From JBHIER01 sp046760705 [NCBI: bacterium] (GTDB taxonomy: Bacteria; JBHIER01; G020348925): a stretch of 24,904 nt of DNA. The stretch covers positions 1 through 24,904 of the forward strand of contig JBHIER010000004.1 of assembly GCA_046760705.1 (NCBI GenBank). Direction: 5' to 3'. Position numbers and translations under genes: made by a program. The notes under the pieces are model-generated. The model was not told the DNA's origin and ran no database searches. It was given only the letters and a program-made list of their open reading frames with translations. Of the stretch, positions 538 through 24,904 are shown in pieces (the stretch's first letter is position 1; each line of letters begins with the position of its first letter).

Positions 538-567
538 TCTCACAAGTGTATGATCTACGGCGGCAAG

Positions 568-636
568 CCGTGCCTGGAGTTTTCGTTGCGACCCCGAACG
601 TGATTGCTTCGCTATCGCTCGCAATGACAGGCACGG
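568..636. repeat. MITE/REP-like palindromic element
   Basis: Perfect 9-bp terminal inverted repeats CCGTGCCTG (568-576) and CAGGCACGG (628-636) enclose a nested pair TTGCGA (586-591) / TCGCAA (619-624). The core reads GATTGCTTCGC then GCTCGCAATGACA, resembling the 'TGTCATTGCGAGC...GCAATC' dispersed intergenic palindrome common in many environmental bacteria. It lies about 30 nt upstream of the nucleotidyltransferase start. The gap 541-743 otherwise shows only a small palindrome ATGAC-TTCA-GTCAT (661-674) and no gene. Confidence 0.6.
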
Positions 637-743
637 GTCTTAGCTGTTATTTCTAAGGAAATGACTTCAGTCATCAAAACTCACAATGACAGCCAACAAA
701 AGACGTAACTATAGTTGTGAGCCATAGCCCTTTGTGAATCCCA

Positions 744-1695: not shown

Positions 1696-1744
1696 GGGCT
1701 ACACTACATTCTCCTGCATAATTCGTTCCATAGTAGTGTAGCCC
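1696..1744. repeat. 12-bp perfect inverted repeat between alr and the cyclase gene
   Basis: GGGCTACACTAC (1696-1707) and GTAGTGTAGCCC (1733-1744) are perfect reverse complements around a 25-nt loop. Neither side carries a T-tract, so a simple Rho-independent terminator is unlikely. It could be the remnant of a small mobile element, an operator, or an mRNA hairpin between the two genes. Nothing else is recognisable in 1620-1821. Confidence 0.6.
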
Positions 1745-5836: not shown

Positions 5837-7006
5837 ATGAATCGAGAGAATCCTTTTTCGCCGACGTTTCCAGTTAATCCAAAGTATTTTGTCAACCGAA
5901 CCGATGTAATAGACTCGCTCAAACGGGCTTTTGGGAGGTCTATCAAGTCGGAATTTCCAACCCCGGATAATGTGGCCATATTAGGTGATTGGGGAGTTGG
6001 GAAAACATCGATGCTGCGGAAGTTTGAGGAGATTGCCTTGAGAGAGTTTAAGAGTAGAAAGGTAGTCTCTGCAATTGTAGAATTGATTCCCACTTCGTGC
6101 AACTCTTTTTTCCTCTTTATGAAAAAGGTGGTGGATGACATTGAAAGGAGCTTTGCAGTCAAAGCCCCAATCATGGTCAAACTCAGGGAGAGGATAAGAG
6201 AATGGAGGGTCAAATCGATCGGGGTTGGGACCGCCTTGGAACTGGAGCGAAAAATCAGAGAGAGATCGGAAGTGACCGTTTTTGAGGATGCGCTCATTCA
6301 TTTTTGGAAGGCCGTAGAGAGCTTAGGGATTGATACAGTCATCCTCATGCTCGATGACCTTCATTATTTAGCCGAAGGATATCCTCAAGGATTGTATGAC
6401 CTGCGGGGAATATTTCAAGGACTTCCGAGGCACGGCTGCAATTTCATGCTCTGTATGAGTGGCAGCAGAGACTTATTCGCCGAAGTTCGAGAGCTGGCCG
6501 AACCCTTTGCCAGATTCTTCAATGTAAAACATACTCTGGACAACTTTTCCCCCGAGGAGACGAGGAACGCCATTCTTACCCCAATAGAAAGGGCAGGATT
6601 GAATATAACTGTCGAAGAAAGGGTGGTCCAGAAAATTTATGATCTCACTGTTGGACATCCATTTTTCATCCATTTCCTTATGAGAGAGCTGGTCACCATA
6701 AGGGAAAAAGGGAAGATCTCAATTGGTTTTTTTGATAACCACTATCCGATAGTAGAAAGGATTATGGCCAGGGAGAAATTTGCAGGAGACTTTTCCATCG
6801 CCAGTGACAAGGAGAAGGAGATCTTGTTAGCTGTGGCGGCAATTAAATCGGATACTTTTACACCTTCGCAGTTGAAAATTAAGAATGTCAGACCTCGCTT
6901 CAATGGTATGGTTAGGAAGAATCTCATAGTTAAAGTAGGGCGAGGGGAATATGGTTTGTATCATCCCTTATTCAAGGAATATTTACGAAATGTAGAGAAT
7001 ACATAA
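5837..7006 (+). CDS. AAA/archaeal-type (Orc1-Cdc6-like, STAND-related) ATPase
   Basis: The 389-residue protein starts with NPFSPTFPVNPKYFVNR, the 'NPF...F.xR' lead-in found in archaeal-type and Orc1/Cdc6-like ATPases. Walker A is GDWGVGKTS at 50-58, Walker B VILMLDD at 168-174, and LCMSGSRD at 205-212 fits sensor 1. An arginine-rich helical insert lies at about 115-145. The C-terminus (about 300-385) looks like a winged helix, with FNGMVRKNLIVKVGRGEYGLYHPLFKEYLR. Such proteins act as nucleotide switches in DNA binding, signalling or defence; the specific role is unknown. There is only a weak GAAGG 11 nt before the ATG. It is the only long plus-strand gene, clearly richer in A+T than tmk or the dcw genes, and stands between two minus-strand units, so horizontal acquisition is likely. 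Confidence 0.85.
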   Translation: MNRENPFSPTFPVNPKYFVNRTDVIDSLKRAFGRSIKSEFPTPDNVAILGDWGVGKTSMLRKFEEIALREFKSRKVVSAIVELIPTSCNSFFLFMKKVVDDIERSFAVKAPIMVKLRERIREWRVKSIGVGTALELERKIRERSEVTVFEDALIHFWKAVESLGIDTVILMLDDLHYLAEGYPQGLYDLRGIFQGLPRHGCNFMLCMSGSRDLFAEVRELAEPFARFFNVKHTLDNFSPEETRNAILTPIERAGLNITVEERVVQKIYDLTVGHPFFIHFLMRELVTIREKGKISIGFFDNHYPIVERIMAREKFAGDFSIASDKEKEILLAVAAIKSDTFTPSQLKIKNVRPRFNGMVRKNLIVKVGRGEYGLYHPLFKEYLRNVENT

Positions 7007-7504
7007 TCTTATGGCTATCGTACTTTCCGTACATTTGGCCATAAAGCTGAGGAGGGCAGTGGGGGATCTGCCGAAACCTCAGGAGAGGACAGAGCAGGAA
7101 CTGAGGAATCTGGCCCGCTCCTACCGTCGGGGTGGCAATATCTTAGATCGTCATATCGCCACTTCAAGGTGCTTGATGGCTATCGCTTCTGGATATCTCA
7201 GATCGATGGATCTATTCTCTTCCCTCAATTCCTCCACAGACGGCTTTAATATTTTCCAGGGCCACCTCCTTCAGAATTTTGCCGAACCTCTCCAGTTTTT
7301 TAACAGTTCTTGTTTCTCCATCTTCTCAGCCCCTCTTCACTCTTGATCACAGATTATGCGTAAAGAGGCATCCTTGGACCGCCTGGATCATCCGATCAAG
7401 TCGGATGATAACCCCCCATTGTCATTCCCGGATCACCCGCTTGTAACACCGAGCGGACAGGGACGTCCGCCCCAATGGATCAGGAATGCGGGGCGGGCAC
7501 CTGT
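7007..7504. other. Intergenic region with no intact gene
   Basis: About 500 nt separate the convergent ATPase and ATP-grasp genes. Plus-strand frames open here do not resemble a known protein. On the minus strand, 7321 down to 7151 shows an ATG followed by helix-like coding potential split over three frames (MEKQELLK, then KLERFGKILKEVALENIKAV, then SVEELREENRSIDLRYPEA), which could be a decayed short gene; I cannot name it. The right third (7410-7500) has imperfect inverted repeats around CGGAC...GTCCG and near ATTCC/GGAAT, suggestive of a worn repeat. Confidence 0.4.
7387..7409. repeat. Perfect 9-bp hairpin between convergent genes
   Basis: ATCATCCGA (7387-7395) and TCGGATGAT (7401-7409) pair around TCAAG. 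It lies between the ends of two convergent genes, where a bidirectional terminator would be expected, but there is no T-tract on either side. Confidence 0.45.
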
Positions 7505-10834: not shown

Positions 10835-12076
10835 TCAAAAAAATTCTCCGAACCAGCGTCTCATCCGATCCCAAATTTTTTCGAACAGGTTCGACTCATT
10901 GACGTCCCGGAAGCCCTCTTCGCCCGACCGATTTTTTATGGCATAATGGATGAGTCCAATCCCGGTAGAATAGACGGGGCTTTTGATCTCGTCCATCAAT
11001 CCGTTGACCCCCTGGGGCACTCCGAGCTTGACCGGCAGATCGAAGACCTGCTCGGCCAACTCCACCGAACCCTCCATCAAAGAAGCCCCTCCAGTGATGA
11101 CAATGCCAGTGGTCAACAGTCCGGCGTAGTCGGACTTATTGATTTCACGCCGGGCCAAACTGAAGATCTCCTCCATCCTCGGTTCGATGACGCTGCAGAG
11201 CACACCGCAGGAGATCTGGCGGGATGGCCGGCCGCCGGCACTTTCCACCTCGATGAGCTCGTCCCTCTCCACCATGGCCTGGAGGGCACATCCCTTCTCG
11301 ATCTTAACCTCTTCAGCCTTGTCCACTGGTGTCCTGAGCCCTATGGCGATATCGTTGGTCACATTCCGTCCCCCCAGACCGATGACCGCGGTGTGCCGGA
11401 TGGACCCTTCGAAGAAGAGGGCGATATCGGTGGTGCCGCCGCCGATATCCAATAGACCCACACCCAGCTCCATCTCGTCTTGGGACAGGACAGCATAACT
11501 GGAGGCCAACGGTTGGAGGACCAAATCCTTCACCTCCAACCCTGCTCGCTTAATGCTGTTGTAAATGTTCTGGGCCGAGGTGACGGCCCCGGTGACAATA
11601 TGAACCTCGGCCTCCAAACGTACCCCGGCCATGCCGACAGGATCTTTGATCCCGGATTGATCGTCCACCACAAACCCCTGGGGGAGAACGTGGATGATCT
11701 CTCGGTCCATGGGGATGGCCACGGCTTTGGCGGCATCGATGACCCGTTTGACGTCGTGGCCGGTAATTTCGTGGTCACCTCTGGAGACAGCAATAACCCC
11801 CCGACTGTTGATGGACCGAATGTGGTCGCCGGCAATTCCAGCGTACACGGAGTGGATCTTCCTGTTAGACATCCGTTCCGCCTCGGCGATGGCCGCCCTT
11901 ATCGATTGAACCGTCCTCTCCACATTGACAACGACACCGCGCCTGAGCCCCTCTGAGGGGCTCGTCCCCACCCCGACAAGACTCACCTCACCATCCGGCC
12001 CAATTTCGGCCACAATGACGCCGATCTTCGTGGTGCCAACATCCAGACCTACAATAACATTGTCCTCACTCCCCAT
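10835..12076 (-). CDS. ftsA: Cell division protein FtsA
   Basis: The 413-residue actin-like ATPase tethers FtsZ to the inner membrane and recruits later division proteins. The phosphate-1 motif GLDVGTTK is at 10-17, followed by the SHS2/1C domain (about 80-160), phosphate-2 LLDIGGGTTDIA and the adenosine motif GIVITGGASLM. The last residues, LFEKIWDRMRRWFGEFF, form the amphipathic membrane-targeting helix. The ATG at 12076 has AGGAAGG nine bases upstream. Unlike the compact genes before it, ftsA is preceded by a 392-nt gap containing two structured tandem elements, suggesting that ftsA-ftsZ has its own expression control. FtsZ follows after 124 nt. Confidence 0.97.
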   Translation of the reverse strand: MGSEDNVIVGLDVGTTKIGVIVAEIGPDGEVSLVGVGTSPSEGLRRGVVVNVERTVQSIRAAIAEAERMSNRKIHSVYAGIAGDHIRSINSRGVIAVSRGDHEITGHDVKRVIDAAKAVAIPMDREIIHVLPQGFVVDDQSGIKDPVGMAGVRLEAEVHIVTGAVTSAQNIYNSIKRAGLEVKDLVLQPLASSYAVLSQDEMELGVGLLDIGGGTTDIALFFEGSIRHTAVIGLGGRNVTNDIAIGLRTPVDKAEEVKIEKGCALQAMVERDELIEVESAGGRPSRQISCGVLCSVIEPRMEEIFSLARREINKSDYAGLLTTGIVITGGASLMEGSVELAEQVFDLPVKLGVPQGVNGLMDEIKSPVYSTGIGLIHYAIKNRSGEEGFRDVNESNLFEKIWDRMRRWFGEFF

Positions 12077-12119
12077 GGTCGGTAACCTTCCTCACACAGG
12101 ACCTTTCAGGACGGCTTCT

Positions 12120-12226
12120 GTCGAGCAGGCTTTCACCTGAAGAGAGGGACAATAGCGGCTGTCGAAGCCTTGGTTGGCCACGGGTAGTATGTTTGGCCAC
12201 AACTTCAGGCTACTCGCCTGCTCGAC
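12120..12226 (-). promoter_or_regulatory. Structured tandem element B, ftsA-proximal
   Basis: GTCGAGCAGGC (12120-12130) pairs perfectly with GCCTGCTCGAC (12216-12226), 11 bp enclosing 85 nt. The inside shares with element A, in the same order, GAGGGACAA (12144-12152) and GGGTAG (12182-12187), given in plus-strand spelling. The GAGCAGGCT-N12-GAGGGACAA spacing is identical in both. In transcript sense the unit could fold an inner GGCU/AGCC hairpin. It ends 43 nt before the ftsA start, so it would lie in the 5' leader. It may be a cis-regulatory RNA, a paired protein-binding site or a repeated mobile sequence. Confidence 0.55.
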
Positions 12227-12240
12227 TTCCACCACTTGCT

Positions 12241-12359
12241 CTGAGCAGGCTATGGCCCTTTGGGAGGGACAACATAACGGAGAGAGAAATGTGGTGTGAT
12301 AGGAATGGGTAGGCTTGCTTATCGTTTTGTCAATTAACCCAGGCCAGTCACCTGCTCAG
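12241..12359 (-). promoter_or_regulatory. Structured tandem element A, ftsQ-proximal
   Basis: CTGAGCAGG (12241-12249) pairs with CCTGCTCAG (12351-12359), 9 bp enclosing about 100 nt. GAGGGACAA is at 12264-12272 and GGGTAG at 12307-12312 in plus spelling, matching element B in order. Two base pairs of the closing stem differ from B by compensatory change (T-A versus C-G, then C-G versus T-A). On the minus strand a TTGACA (12326-12331) occurs inside it, without a convincing -10. The rest of the 12360-12468 gap shows only a small hairpin GAAAG-GAGT-CTTTC. Confidence 0.55.
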
Positions 12360-12468
12360 ATTTTCGTTTTCGCCACTGTTTAGACCATTTCTTTCTATCT
12401 CCGCACCTATTTCATGTGGGGCCGGAATCGGAGGAAAGACTCCTTTCTATCGGCTTCATTTTCTCTCA

Positions 12469-13368
12469 TTAACCTTTCACTGGAGGCGATTCCAGCCCCA
12501 CGTCTCGGTTTGAGATCGGTCTGACAATAATCTGACCCAGAAAACGCGCATCGATATATTCAGCCTCGATCCCCTTCCGTTCCATGTCGGCCAAGACCAC
12601 CGGCAGACTGGCCAGTCTTGAGAGACACCCAGCGCCCCCAATCCTGACGGGAACACCTTTGGCCGCAGGGTACAATAGCGGGTGTCTGATGTCACTGAGG
12701 TCGAGCTCTCCGATCCCAAACGGTGGGCTCGGTCTCATCTCAGCCATAGCCCTGATGAAGGAGATGGCCCAGCGAACCTTCTCAGATTGGAGAGGTTCTC
12801 CGCACTCCTCATCTCCAAGGTCAACTCCTGAAAGGACTGGTAGACCGGGCCACTGCTCCGGTGAGAGGGGATGAAGCAGCACCCCTTCCTCGTCAACTGT
12901 GCCGCCATCACTCTCCAAGAGGGCTACCGGCTTCCTCTCCTCTATCGAAATGACGAGGGACGAGGGCAAACGGCGCTGTACCTCTGCCCTGCGAACGAAG
13001 CAGTTCTCCGCGAGTCTCTCTCTTATCTCTCCGACATCGATGCGAAAGAGATTACATCTGGGCTCTATCCTGGCCAACCCCAATACTGTCTCTTCGGAAA
13101 CAAGATGATTCCCTCGGACAGTAATCCGCTTCAGCTCAAAGATCGGGGTCTGGAGGGCCCACCTATGGACCTCGTGTCCGAGAAGAGCAACCAACCCCAA
13201 CGCCACCAGGGCCAGGGTGATACGGTTGAAAGCCTTGATCCATCCCAGCAGGATGTGTCTCGATTCTCTTTCGTGAACCTCATTGTAAAATGTTTTTTCC
13301 CTTGTACGCCTCTCTCGTTCCTGTTCAGACATTGCCACAAAGACACAGAGATTACGATTAAGAACCAT
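12469..13368 (-). CDS. ftsQ: Cell division protein FtsQ
   Basis: The 299-residue bitopic protein has a charged cytoplasmic N-terminus, one membrane segment at about 48-66, a POTRA domain starting at FELKRITVRGNHLVSEE (about 77-146) and a periplasmic FtsQ/DivIB beta domain. LPSSLVISIEERKPVALLE is the characteristic POTRA-to-beta junction. FtsQ bridges early and late divisome proteins through FtsB and FtsL. I choose the ATG at 13368, which has GGAGG ten bases upstream; the GTG at 13377 is too close to that site, and an ATG at 13332 is a weaker alternative. It starts 42 nt after murB and is the last gene of the compact murein block. Sequence conservation in the family is low, so the assignment rests on domain order and location. 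Confidence 0.92.
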   Translation of the reverse strand: MVLNRNLCVFVAMSEQERERRTREKTFYNEVHERESRHILLGWIKAFNRITLALVALGLVALLGHEVHRWALQTPIFELKRITVRGNHLVSEETVLGLARIEPRCNLFRIDVGEIRERLAENCFVRRAEVQRRLPSSLVISIEERKPVALLESDGGTVDEEGVLLHPLSPEQWPGLPVLSGVDLGDEECGEPLQSEKVRWAISFIRAMAEMRPSPPFGIGELDLSDIRHPLLYPAAKGVPVRIGGAGCLSRLASLPVVLADMERKGIEAEYIDARFLGQIIVRPISNRDVGLESPPVKG

Positions 13369-13410
13369 TCTTTCCACACCTCCATAGGTTCTCCTGTCAC
13401 AGACAAGGGG

Positions 13411-23497: not shown

Positions 23498-24904
23498 TCA
23501 ATCGCTTTTTAGCCTCTGGGAGAGCAGCTCTGCTGCTCTTTCAGGGGTCGGTTCTTTCACCGCAGCAATTGTGGCCGACCCGTCATCGATCAACAGATCG
23601 GCCTGGGCCCACAGGAAATCCTCCACAGGGGAGTCGGGCAGGTGGACGAGCCTCTTCATGATTCGCCCGAAAGCTGGGGCGGCCACCTCCCCTCCCCAAT
23701 GGACTCCCCGGGGCTCATCCACCACCACCACCCCCACCAGTCTTGGCTCTTCGGCCGGCAAAAATCCGACGAAGGAGGCCACAAACTTGGTGCGAGAGTA
23801 GCCGCGGCCGTCGACTTTCTGGGCAGTACCGGTCTTGCCGGCCACAGTGATGCGGTCCACCCTGGCTTTCACCCCGGTCCCACGGTCGACAACCCCTGTG
23901 AGAAATTGGGTCAACACCCGGGCGATCTCCGGCCTCAAGAGGGTTCGGACCCTCATCGGCTCCATCTCCTCGACCACCTCACCCTTCCGATTCAACACTC
24001 TTTTTACAATCTGAGGCTGCATCAACCGCCCCCGGTTGGCCACGGCCGCGTAGGCACAGGCTATCTGGAGAGCCGTAACCGACACCTCCTGGCCCAGAGA
24101 TAGGGTCATCAGGGACCGCTTCGACCAACTGGCCGGATTCCTCAGTATACCCTCCACCTCCCCTGGAAATTGGACTCCGGTCTTACACCCAAATCCAAAA
24201 TTGGTGGCATACTCATAAAAGATGGAGGGACCGACTTTTAGGGCCACCTTGGCCACGGCGATGTTGACCGACTGTTCGATGGCCTGTCGGAAGGTGACCC
24301 ATCCGAACCTTTTCCAGTCGTGAAGGATCGTTCCGGCAAAAGAGAAGGTTCCGTCCTCAGCATAAAGAGAGTCCTCTGGCCGAATTATCCCCTCCTGCAG
24401 GGCAGCCGCGGCGGTGACCACCTTGAAGATGCTGCCAGGTTCAAAGATATCGGTCACCACTCGATTCTTGCGCCGAGCCTTCCCGCACCGATCGAGATGG
24501 TTGAGATCGCAATCGGGGAGATTGGCCATAGCCAGGATTTCCCCTGTTTGAGGAATCATGACTACGGCCATAGCCCCTTTGGCACCGTAGCGTTTCACCG
24601 TTGTCCGCAGTTCCTCCTCAACGATCGACTGGTAGCGCGCATCCAGGGTCAACACCACATCGTACCCGTCCTCTGGGGGATCGTACGGAAGCTTGACGTC
24701 CGAGTGGCGGCAGCGGTTGGCATCCATCTCCACCAAGCACTTTCCAAAAGTCCCCTTCAGAAGGGAGTCCATCTCCAACTCCATCCCTTCGATACCGCGA
24801 CTGTCGGCATCTGTGAATCCAATCACCTGCCCCCCGAGAGCCCCAAATGGGTAATAGCGGAACACCTCTCTCCGATGCTGAACCCCCGGCAGGTTCAGAG
24901 ATCC
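23498..24904 (-). CDS. ftsI: Septal transpeptidase FtsI / penicillin-binding protein (5' end cut by window)
   Basis: 468 residues are visible; the frame runs in open from the right edge, so the N-terminal membrane anchor and part of the dimerisation domain are missing. The visible part starts in the 'LPGVxxxxxxxRxYPFG' segment typical of class B PBPs. The transpeptidase motifs are SxxK as GSIFK (Ser158, Lys161 of the visible part), SxN as SVN (212-214) and KTG as AGKTGTAQK (357-359). It cross-links septal peptidoglycan in the periplasm with FtsW. There is no PASTA domain; a ~40-residue tail follows the transpeptidase fold. A GTG at 24865 is only internal. Position at the head of the murE-murF series agrees with FtsI. 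Confidence 0.96.
   Translation of the reverse strand, partial: GSLNLPGVQHRREVFRYYPFGALGGQVIGFTDADSRGIEGMELEMDSLLKGTFGKCLVEMDANRCRHSDVKLPYDPPEDGYDVVLTLDARYQSIVEEELRTTVKRYGAKGAMAVVMIPQTGEILAMANLPDCDLNHLDRCGKARRKNRVVTDIFEPGSIFKVVTAAAALQEGIIRPEDSLYAEDGTFSFAGTILHDWKRFGWVTFRQAIEQSVNIAVAKVALKVGPSIFYEYATNFGFGCKTGVQFPGEVEGILRNPASWSKRSLMTLSLGQEVSVTALQIACAYAAVANRGRLMQPQIVKRVLNRKGEVVEEMEPMRVRTLLRPEIARVLTQFLTGVVDRGTGVKARVDRITVAGKTGTAQKVDGRGYSRTKFVASFVGFLPAEEPRLVGVVVVDEPRGVHWGGEVAAPAFGRIMKRLVHLPDSPVEDFLWAQADLLIDDGSATIAAVKEPTPERAAELLSQRLKSD

What the first reader, a model, noticed from the sequence alone, without database searches (positions are those of the whole stretch)
12120..12359. Two tandem, stem-bounded, divergent elements in the ftsQ-ftsA gap with compensatory base changes
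Each unit is closed by a perfect stem (11 bp in B, 9 bp in A) built on GAGCAGG/CCTGCTC. The first two base pairs outside the shared core are exchanged in a compensating way between units (T-A to C-G, C-G to T-A). In plus spelling GAGCAGGCT-N12-GAGGGACAA occurs at 12123 and again exactly 120 nt later at 12243, and GGGTAG follows in both. The interiors are otherwise strongly diverged and differ in length, so this is not a fresh duplication. It sits in the only large gap of an otherwise compact operon, 43 nt before ftsA. I know no Rfam family of this shape; tandem riboswitch-like or attenuator RNA, or a dimeric-protein site, are possible.
Basis: partly seen in the sequence, partly recalled or inferred. 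Interest (0 to 1): 0.78.

Follow-up and report, generated by a model that had tools for sequence, protein, structure and literature searches.

The report
Two diverged hairpins before ftsA
Two old, look-alike RNA hairpins sit side by side between two cell-division genes of an uncultured bacterium; they are most likely copies of a small palindromic repeat carried in the messenger RNA, although a lineage-specific control RNA is not excluded.

Summary
Elements A (12120-12226) and B (12240-12360) fill much of the 392-nt ftsQ-ftsA gap. On the minus (mRNA) strand each has an 11-bp closing stem P1 and an inner stem P2. Three outer P1 pairs change on both sides, and three one-sided changes are standard pairs only on that strand. 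Homology is clear in the arms (0 of 2000 shuffles each) but marginal in the interiors; the shared GGGTAG word is expected by chance (880 of 2000). No Rfam family fits.

No credible homologue was found in 279 genomes with a two-sequence model or in 100 ftsA/ftsQ loci. In relatives the gap before ftsA is usually tiny (median 19 nt). In two relatives, picked because their gap looked repetitive, pieces of it recur elsewhere in that genome.

I favour two old copies of a small palindromic intergenic repeat, read through as mRNA hairpins that may separate ftsQ from ftsA-ftsZ in decay. A tandem cis-regulatory RNA is a close rival. The window's genome is not held, so copy number, the decisive fact, is unknown.

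The parts
12120..12226 (-). Element A, 107 nt; P1 11 bp (12226-12216 with 12130-12120), P2 8 bp (12210-12203 with 12142-12135)
   Evidence: one search folded 12120-12228: z -5.28, 0 of 200 shuffles
12240..12360 (-). Element B, 121 nt; P1 11 bp incl. one U-G (12360-12350 with 12250-12240), P2 5+3 bp with an AAA bulge (12345-12338 with 12264-12254)
   Evidence: z -3.69, 0 of 200 shuffles
12144..12152 (-). Shared block UUGUCCCUC in A, 12 nt before AGCCUGCUC of P1
12264..12272 (-). Shared block UUGUCCCUC in B, same spacing to P1 (overlaps the 3' strand of P2 in B)
12227..12239 (-). 13-nt linker between B and A; no likeness to the outer flanks seen
   Evidence: one search prints the flanks; likeness judged by eye
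10835..12076 (-). ftsA, downstream gene
   Evidence: PF14450, PF02491
12469..13377 (-). ftsQ, upstream gene
   Evidence: PF08478, FtsQ-type POTRA

Best explanation
A and B are two old copies of one small palindromic intergenic element (107 and 121 nt, of the general ERIC/RPE kind) lodged in tandem in the ftsQ-ftsA gap. Shown: two modules with homologous arms and nearly unrelated interiors, and stem pairing kept through changes on both sides. Read by eye: the likeness begins and ends at the stems. Inferred: they are read through as part of the ftsQ-ftsA-ftsZ mRNA and form two strong hairpins there. Inferred further: any function is post-transcriptional, as processing or stability hairpins that let the ftsA-ftsZ part of the message decay differently from the ftsQ part. 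That the element is mobile or multi-copy in this genome is inferred, not shown.
For: Arms are homologous (0 of 2000 mononucleotide shuffles for each arm; arm limits set by hand after looking) while the interiors are only marginally similar (34 of 2000). P1 has three pairs changed on both sides and all 30 cells of the 15 pairs counted are standard pairs. The three one-sided changes are wobbles only on the mRNA strand. Minus-strand folds are more extreme than plus-strand ones (z -5.28 and -3.69 against -3.28 and -2.14). The gap is longer than that of all 103 measured rows of relatives (maximum 257, median 19), so it looks like an addition. In the two relatives tested, pieces of the same gap recur in that genome: 10 matches in G013, of which one is the gap itself and one its own inverse; 14 in G008 including itself. 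Precedent: RPE are 105-146 bp with long stem-loops, ERIC 127 bp; co-transcribed ERIC changes mRNA stability in Yersinia and NEMIS is a proposed RNase III substrate (PMC2229807, passages).
Against: No copy count: the genome is not held, and no third copy lies in the window (best match outside the two elements 12.3 bits). No target-site duplication of 3-10 nt, and no TA beside the stems (by eye). Conservation is patchy (7-nt and 9-nt blocks intact, interior near random), which even decay of a dead repeat would not give unless the copies belonged to subfamilies with shared ends. The two relatives' gaps were chosen because they looked repetitive; their other matches are short pieces (23-63 nt, 28-47 nt) and unrelated to A and B. 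Both copies lie in operon orientation, which fits an RNA role equally. The shuffle control of the pair count is weak with two rows: 55 of 500 shuffles reach the observed values.
Confidence: 0.45

Rival explanations
1. A lineage-specific tandem cis-regulatory RNA of ftsA-ftsZ: each unit is a binding domain (for a protein or a ligand) built on P1, an internal loop, P2 and the UUGUCCCUC strand, acting on translation or stability of ftsA-ftsZ.
For: Compensating changes in P1, intact UUGUCCCUC at a fixed distance from P1 in both, wobbles only on the mRNA strand, operon orientation of both copies, position 43 nt before ftsA.
Against: No credible homologue in 279 genomes or in 100 ftsA/ftsQ loci; no Rfam match; no terminator-like site; no expression platform seen; CTACCC may be a chance match. 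The absence is weak evidence, because the best FtsA match is only 67% identical and there was no positive control genome.
Confidence: 0.33
2. A single stem-loop was duplicated locally and the copies drifted; the hairpins have no function, and the double changes in P1 come from palindrome correction (template switching) rather than selection.
For: Only two copies in the window, side by side; interiors nearly unrelated; palindrome correction is a known mutational route (recalled).
Against: The likeness stops at the stems rather than running into the flanks (by eye); the UUGUCCCUC block stays identical, which drift would not keep.
Confidence: 0.13
3. DNA-level sites: inverted GAGCAGG/CCTGCTC repeats bound by a dimeric or looping protein.
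For: Perfect inverted arms in both.
Against: Pairs outside the core are exchanged in a compensating way, which a sequence-reading protein would not favour; the P1 arms are 85 and 101 bp apart (coordinates); the one-sided changes fit RNA pairing on one strand.
Confidence: 0.05

Closest known systems
ERIC / RPE / RU-3 type small palindromic repeats (MITE-like)
   Same: About 100-150 bp, long stem-loop; ERIC is intergenic, co-transcribed and affects mRNA stability (PMC2229807, passages)
   Different: Copy number unknown here; no target-site duplication of 3-10 nt; no sequence relation shown or tested
REP elements (GTAG/CGTC-tagged)
   Same: Palindromic
   Different: REPs are 20-40 bp (PMC3733652, start of abstract in the listing); these are 107 and 121 nt with large loops
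Tandem riboswitches or tandem aptamers
   Same: Two like RNA domains in one leader (PMC9481103, passages)
   Different: No Rfam match, no expression platform seen, no homologue found before related genes
Hairpins in the Bacillus mycoides dcw cluster
   Same: Predicted hairpins in spacers of the dcw cluster; ftsQ-ftsA-ftsZ co-transcripts (PMC3762067, passages)
   Different: Mostly predicted terminators; no homologous tandem pair in the passages seen

Membership tests
Small palindromic interspersed repeat (ERIC/RPE-like) | About 100-200 bp with long stem and inverted ends | tested here: met
   107 and 121 nt, P1 11 bp; sizes of the known families from passages
Small palindromic interspersed repeat (ERIC/RPE-like) | Many copies in the genome | not testable with these tools
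   Window genome not held; no third copy in 24.9 kb
Small palindromic interspersed repeat (ERIC/RPE-like) | Target-site duplication (marked + for ERIC, NEMIS, RUP and YPAL, ? for RPE, CIR and RU-3 in the table seen) | tested here: not met
   None of 3-10 nt at offsets -4 to +4; 2-nt ones were outside that test, and no TA beside the stems by eye
Riboswitch / Rfam cis-regulatory RNA | Match to a described family | tested here: not met
   whole window, gathering scores; 12000-12480, E up to 5: one match, a human lncRNA piece at 17.2 bits against a cut-off of 80
Riboswitch / Rfam cis-regulatory RNA | Conserved with covariation upstream of related genes in other species | tested here: inconclusive
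   No credible homologue, but the best FtsA match is only 67% identical
Transcription attenuator | Intrinsic terminator after the sensor | tested here: not met
   0 sites in 11900-12700; shuffle mean 0.6, so a weak test
REP (GTAG/CGTC-tagged) | 20-40 bp palindrome | tested here: not met
   107 and 121 nt; size of REPs from the abstract start

The most novel reading that the evidence does not exclude
The pair is an undescribed tandem RNA class, confined to a lineage not sampled in the collections searched, that sets the ftsA-ftsZ to ftsQ ratio, with P1/P2 and UUGUCCCUC as the core of a protein- or ligand-binding domain.
Probability: 0.24. Interest if true: 0.65.

Novelty: new member of a known kind. 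Interest (0 to 1): 0.3.

Why it matters
If it is a repeat, it adds one more case of palindromic repeats lodging between division genes and shows why covariation between two copies alone cannot prove a regulatory RNA. If it is a control RNA, it would be a post-transcriptional handle on the FtsA/FtsZ ratio, which is poorly known outside model bacteria (recalled).

Tried and rejected
Pattern matches: TTGTCCCTC-N12-AGCCTGCTC hit two viral contigs; their sequences look like one and the same CTG-rich stretch by eye and are read as chance. The 5' block pattern hit two more viral contigs, with no model match in those loci. GAGCAGGNGANT hit 2 of 82 loci (L034, L057), downstream of the ftsA start, and the model found nothing there. 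Phages and plasmids by blastn: no match. The pattern search in 64 genomes gave 1 match, while its reversed control matched in 6 genomes; that locus has no model match.

Weak model matches: L109 (E 0.068 per genome, most of P1 missing) lies inside a 735-codon frame. L113 (E 0.042; its alignment forms most of P1 with other letters) lies inside an 841-codon frame. Both rejected as chance. In 100 loci the best match was E 0.29 in L029, not followed up.

Leader peptides: the short frames in the gap were considered; the shared LSL..G.SLL letters come from the two nucleotide blocks, the differing codons are not synonymous, and no Shine-Dalgarno sequence was seen by eye. Rejected. The weak Rfam match was rejected.

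Superseded or faulty steps: the first gap survey (30 of 80 loci) mis-set two gaps (L035, L047) because the upstream gene was missed at 120 codons, and skipped reversed loci; one search replaced both. In one search the printed P2 probability for A refers to a wrongly chosen pair (one base off) and says nothing. MAFFT on the untrimmed pair set CTACCC two columns out of register, which is why B was trimmed.

Full report
What is there. The window's minus strand carries a dcw cluster. Of eight proteins scanned with Pfam, seven are named here: FtsA, an FtsQ-type POTRA protein, FtsZ, MurB, a Mur ligase (MurC by position, recalled), a D-Ala-D-Ala ligase and NAD synthase; the eighth, on the plus strand, has a weak AAA match. 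Between ftsQ (12469-13377) and ftsA (10835-12076) lie 392 nt. The other 10 of the 11 gaps from the ftsZ frame to the frame ending at 24865 are -23 to 88 nt. Most of the gap is taken by element A (12120-12226) and element B (12240-12360) with a 13-nt linker.

Is it more than chance? The 30-nt direct match (22 identical) is not reached in 200 shuffles of the gap. The stems alone are unremarkable: the window holds 10 stems of at least 9 bp with loops of 40-140, 60 shuffles of it average 9.8, and 68 of 20000 shuffled gaps hold two such stems. The homology of the arms is clear: 0 of 2000 shuffles for the 25-nt 5' arm and 0 of 2000 for the 33-nt 3' arm, with arm limits set by hand after looking. The interiors are marginal (34 of 2000), and a shared 6-mer such as CTACCC is reached in 880 of 2000. 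The GGGTAG part of the finding therefore carries little weight.

Which strand and what structure? On the mRNA strand P1 has 11 pairs in each element and P2 has 8 in A, 5+3 in B. On the two-row alignment A2, in which B was trimmed by hand, all 30 cells of the 15 chosen pairs form standard pairs; 3 pairs change on both sides and 3 on one side. Only the first 4 pairs of P2 were counted, because the upper part of P2 in B does not line up with that in A. With two rows the tool's shuffle control is weak: 55 of 500 shuffles reach the observed values. Sliding the partner by 1 to 3 columns leaves no covarying pair, but that control favours a structure derived from these same sequences. The three one-sided changes are wobble pairs on the minus strand and would be mismatches on the plus strand; this would happen one time in eight by chance (my reckoning). 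In isolation the minus strands fold with z -5.28 and -3.69, the plus strands with -3.28 and -2.14, so the plus strand folds too. In 12100-12380 the P1 pairs have probabilities of 0.95 to 1.0 and the P2 pairs 0.94 to 1.0, except one B P2 pair at 0.47. In the longer 12041-12471 fold, a middle pair of P1 is at 0.76 in A and 0.28 in B, so B is not certain in its full context. No promoter-like site was found on the minus strand and no terminator-like site on either strand of 11900-12700.

Relatives. The best FtsA match in the genome collection is 67% identical; that scan needs a shared short peptide and kept 80 of 376 relatives. The best-scoring FtsQ is 31% identical. The lineage therefore seems not to be sampled there, and its phylum is not settled: within the loci fetched, FtsA, FtsZ, MurC, MurB and FtsQ point to different neighbours. 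The gap between ftsA and the nearest upstream frame of at least 100 codons (taken to be ftsQ, not checked for each) was measured in 103 of 105 loci rows, with at least two loci present twice: median 19 nt, 86 at most 100, 16 of 100-200, one of 257. Model R1 found nothing credible in 279 distinct genomes: 64, 1 and 132 (E up to 0.5), 47, 4 and 40 (E up to 0.1), 9 of the last being already counted. Two weak matches fell inside long reading frames. There was no genome known to hold the element as a positive control, and strict filters were used in the three larger sets, so absence is weak evidence.

What fills this gap elsewhere? I tested two relatives, picked because their gap looked repetitive by eye. 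In G013 (gap of L036, 89 nt) the query gave 10 matches: itself, its own inverse, and 8 pieces of 23-63 nt elsewhere. In G008 (gap of L009, 171 nt) it gave 14: itself and 13 pieces of 28-47 nt elsewhere, with 40 of 108 candidates scored. These repeats differ from A and B. They show that this gap can take up recurring sequence in this part of the tree; how often, I did not measure. This is the main reason why I rank the repeat reading first.

How it most likely works. The modules start and end at their stems (by eye), keep their arms and let the middle vary. Small palindromic repeats, when co-transcribed, form hairpins; for ERIC in Yersinia, upstream transcripts are less stable than downstream ones, and exposure of an RNase E site was proposed (PMC2229807, passages). 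By analogy the pair may separate the decay of ftsQ from that of ftsA-ftsZ. That step is inference; I had no transcription data. Against it stand the patchy conservation, the lack of a third copy in the window and the lack of target-site duplications. A lineage-specific tandem control RNA therefore keeps about a third of the weight. Calling it a new member of a known kind means the broad kind, small intergenic palindromic elements; membership in ERIC, RPE or any named family is not claimed.

Literature. I saw listings with abstract starts, and passages of three papers. The searches 'ftsA, ftsQ, riboswitch' (11 papers, all listed), 'ftsQ ftsA intergenic region' (0), 'intergenic hairpin, differential mRNA stability, ftsZ' (1), ftsQ/ftsA mRNA processing with RNase E and stoichiometry (0), structured RNA motifs with ftsZ-DE (10 listed of 5,915), palindromic repeats with MITE (8 listed of 13) and ERIC with RNase E (6 listed of 96) showed no title or abstract start that describes such an element before ftsA. 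Papers not listed were not seen.

Noticed in passing
window 1696-1744: Perfect 12-bp inverted repeat GGGCTACACTAC / GTAGTGTAGCCC with a 25-nt loop in the 202-nt gap between two minus-strand frames.
   Followed up: no
window 12146-12163 and 12669-12686: An 18-nt piece of element A has a second copy (89% identical) inside ftsQ; short two-copy matches are often chance.
   Followed up: no
window 540-720 and 7340-7500: Intergenic stretches that resemble widespread genome repeats (such as the stretch CGTGATTGCTTCGCTATCGCTCGCAATGAC); the resemblance is recalled and comes from no call (sequence).
   Followed up: no
window 5837-7006: Plus-strand frame with a weak AAA ATPase match (below Pfam's cut-off), set in a 2-kb break between minus-strand frames.
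   Followed up: no
L036:2406-2494 and L009:1325-1495: Gaps before ftsA of two relatives hold pieces that recur elsewhere in the same genome.
   Followed up: partly
L025 and L031, gap before ftsA: AT-rich palindromes with arms of 17 and 26 nt in the gap before ftsA.
   Followed up: no
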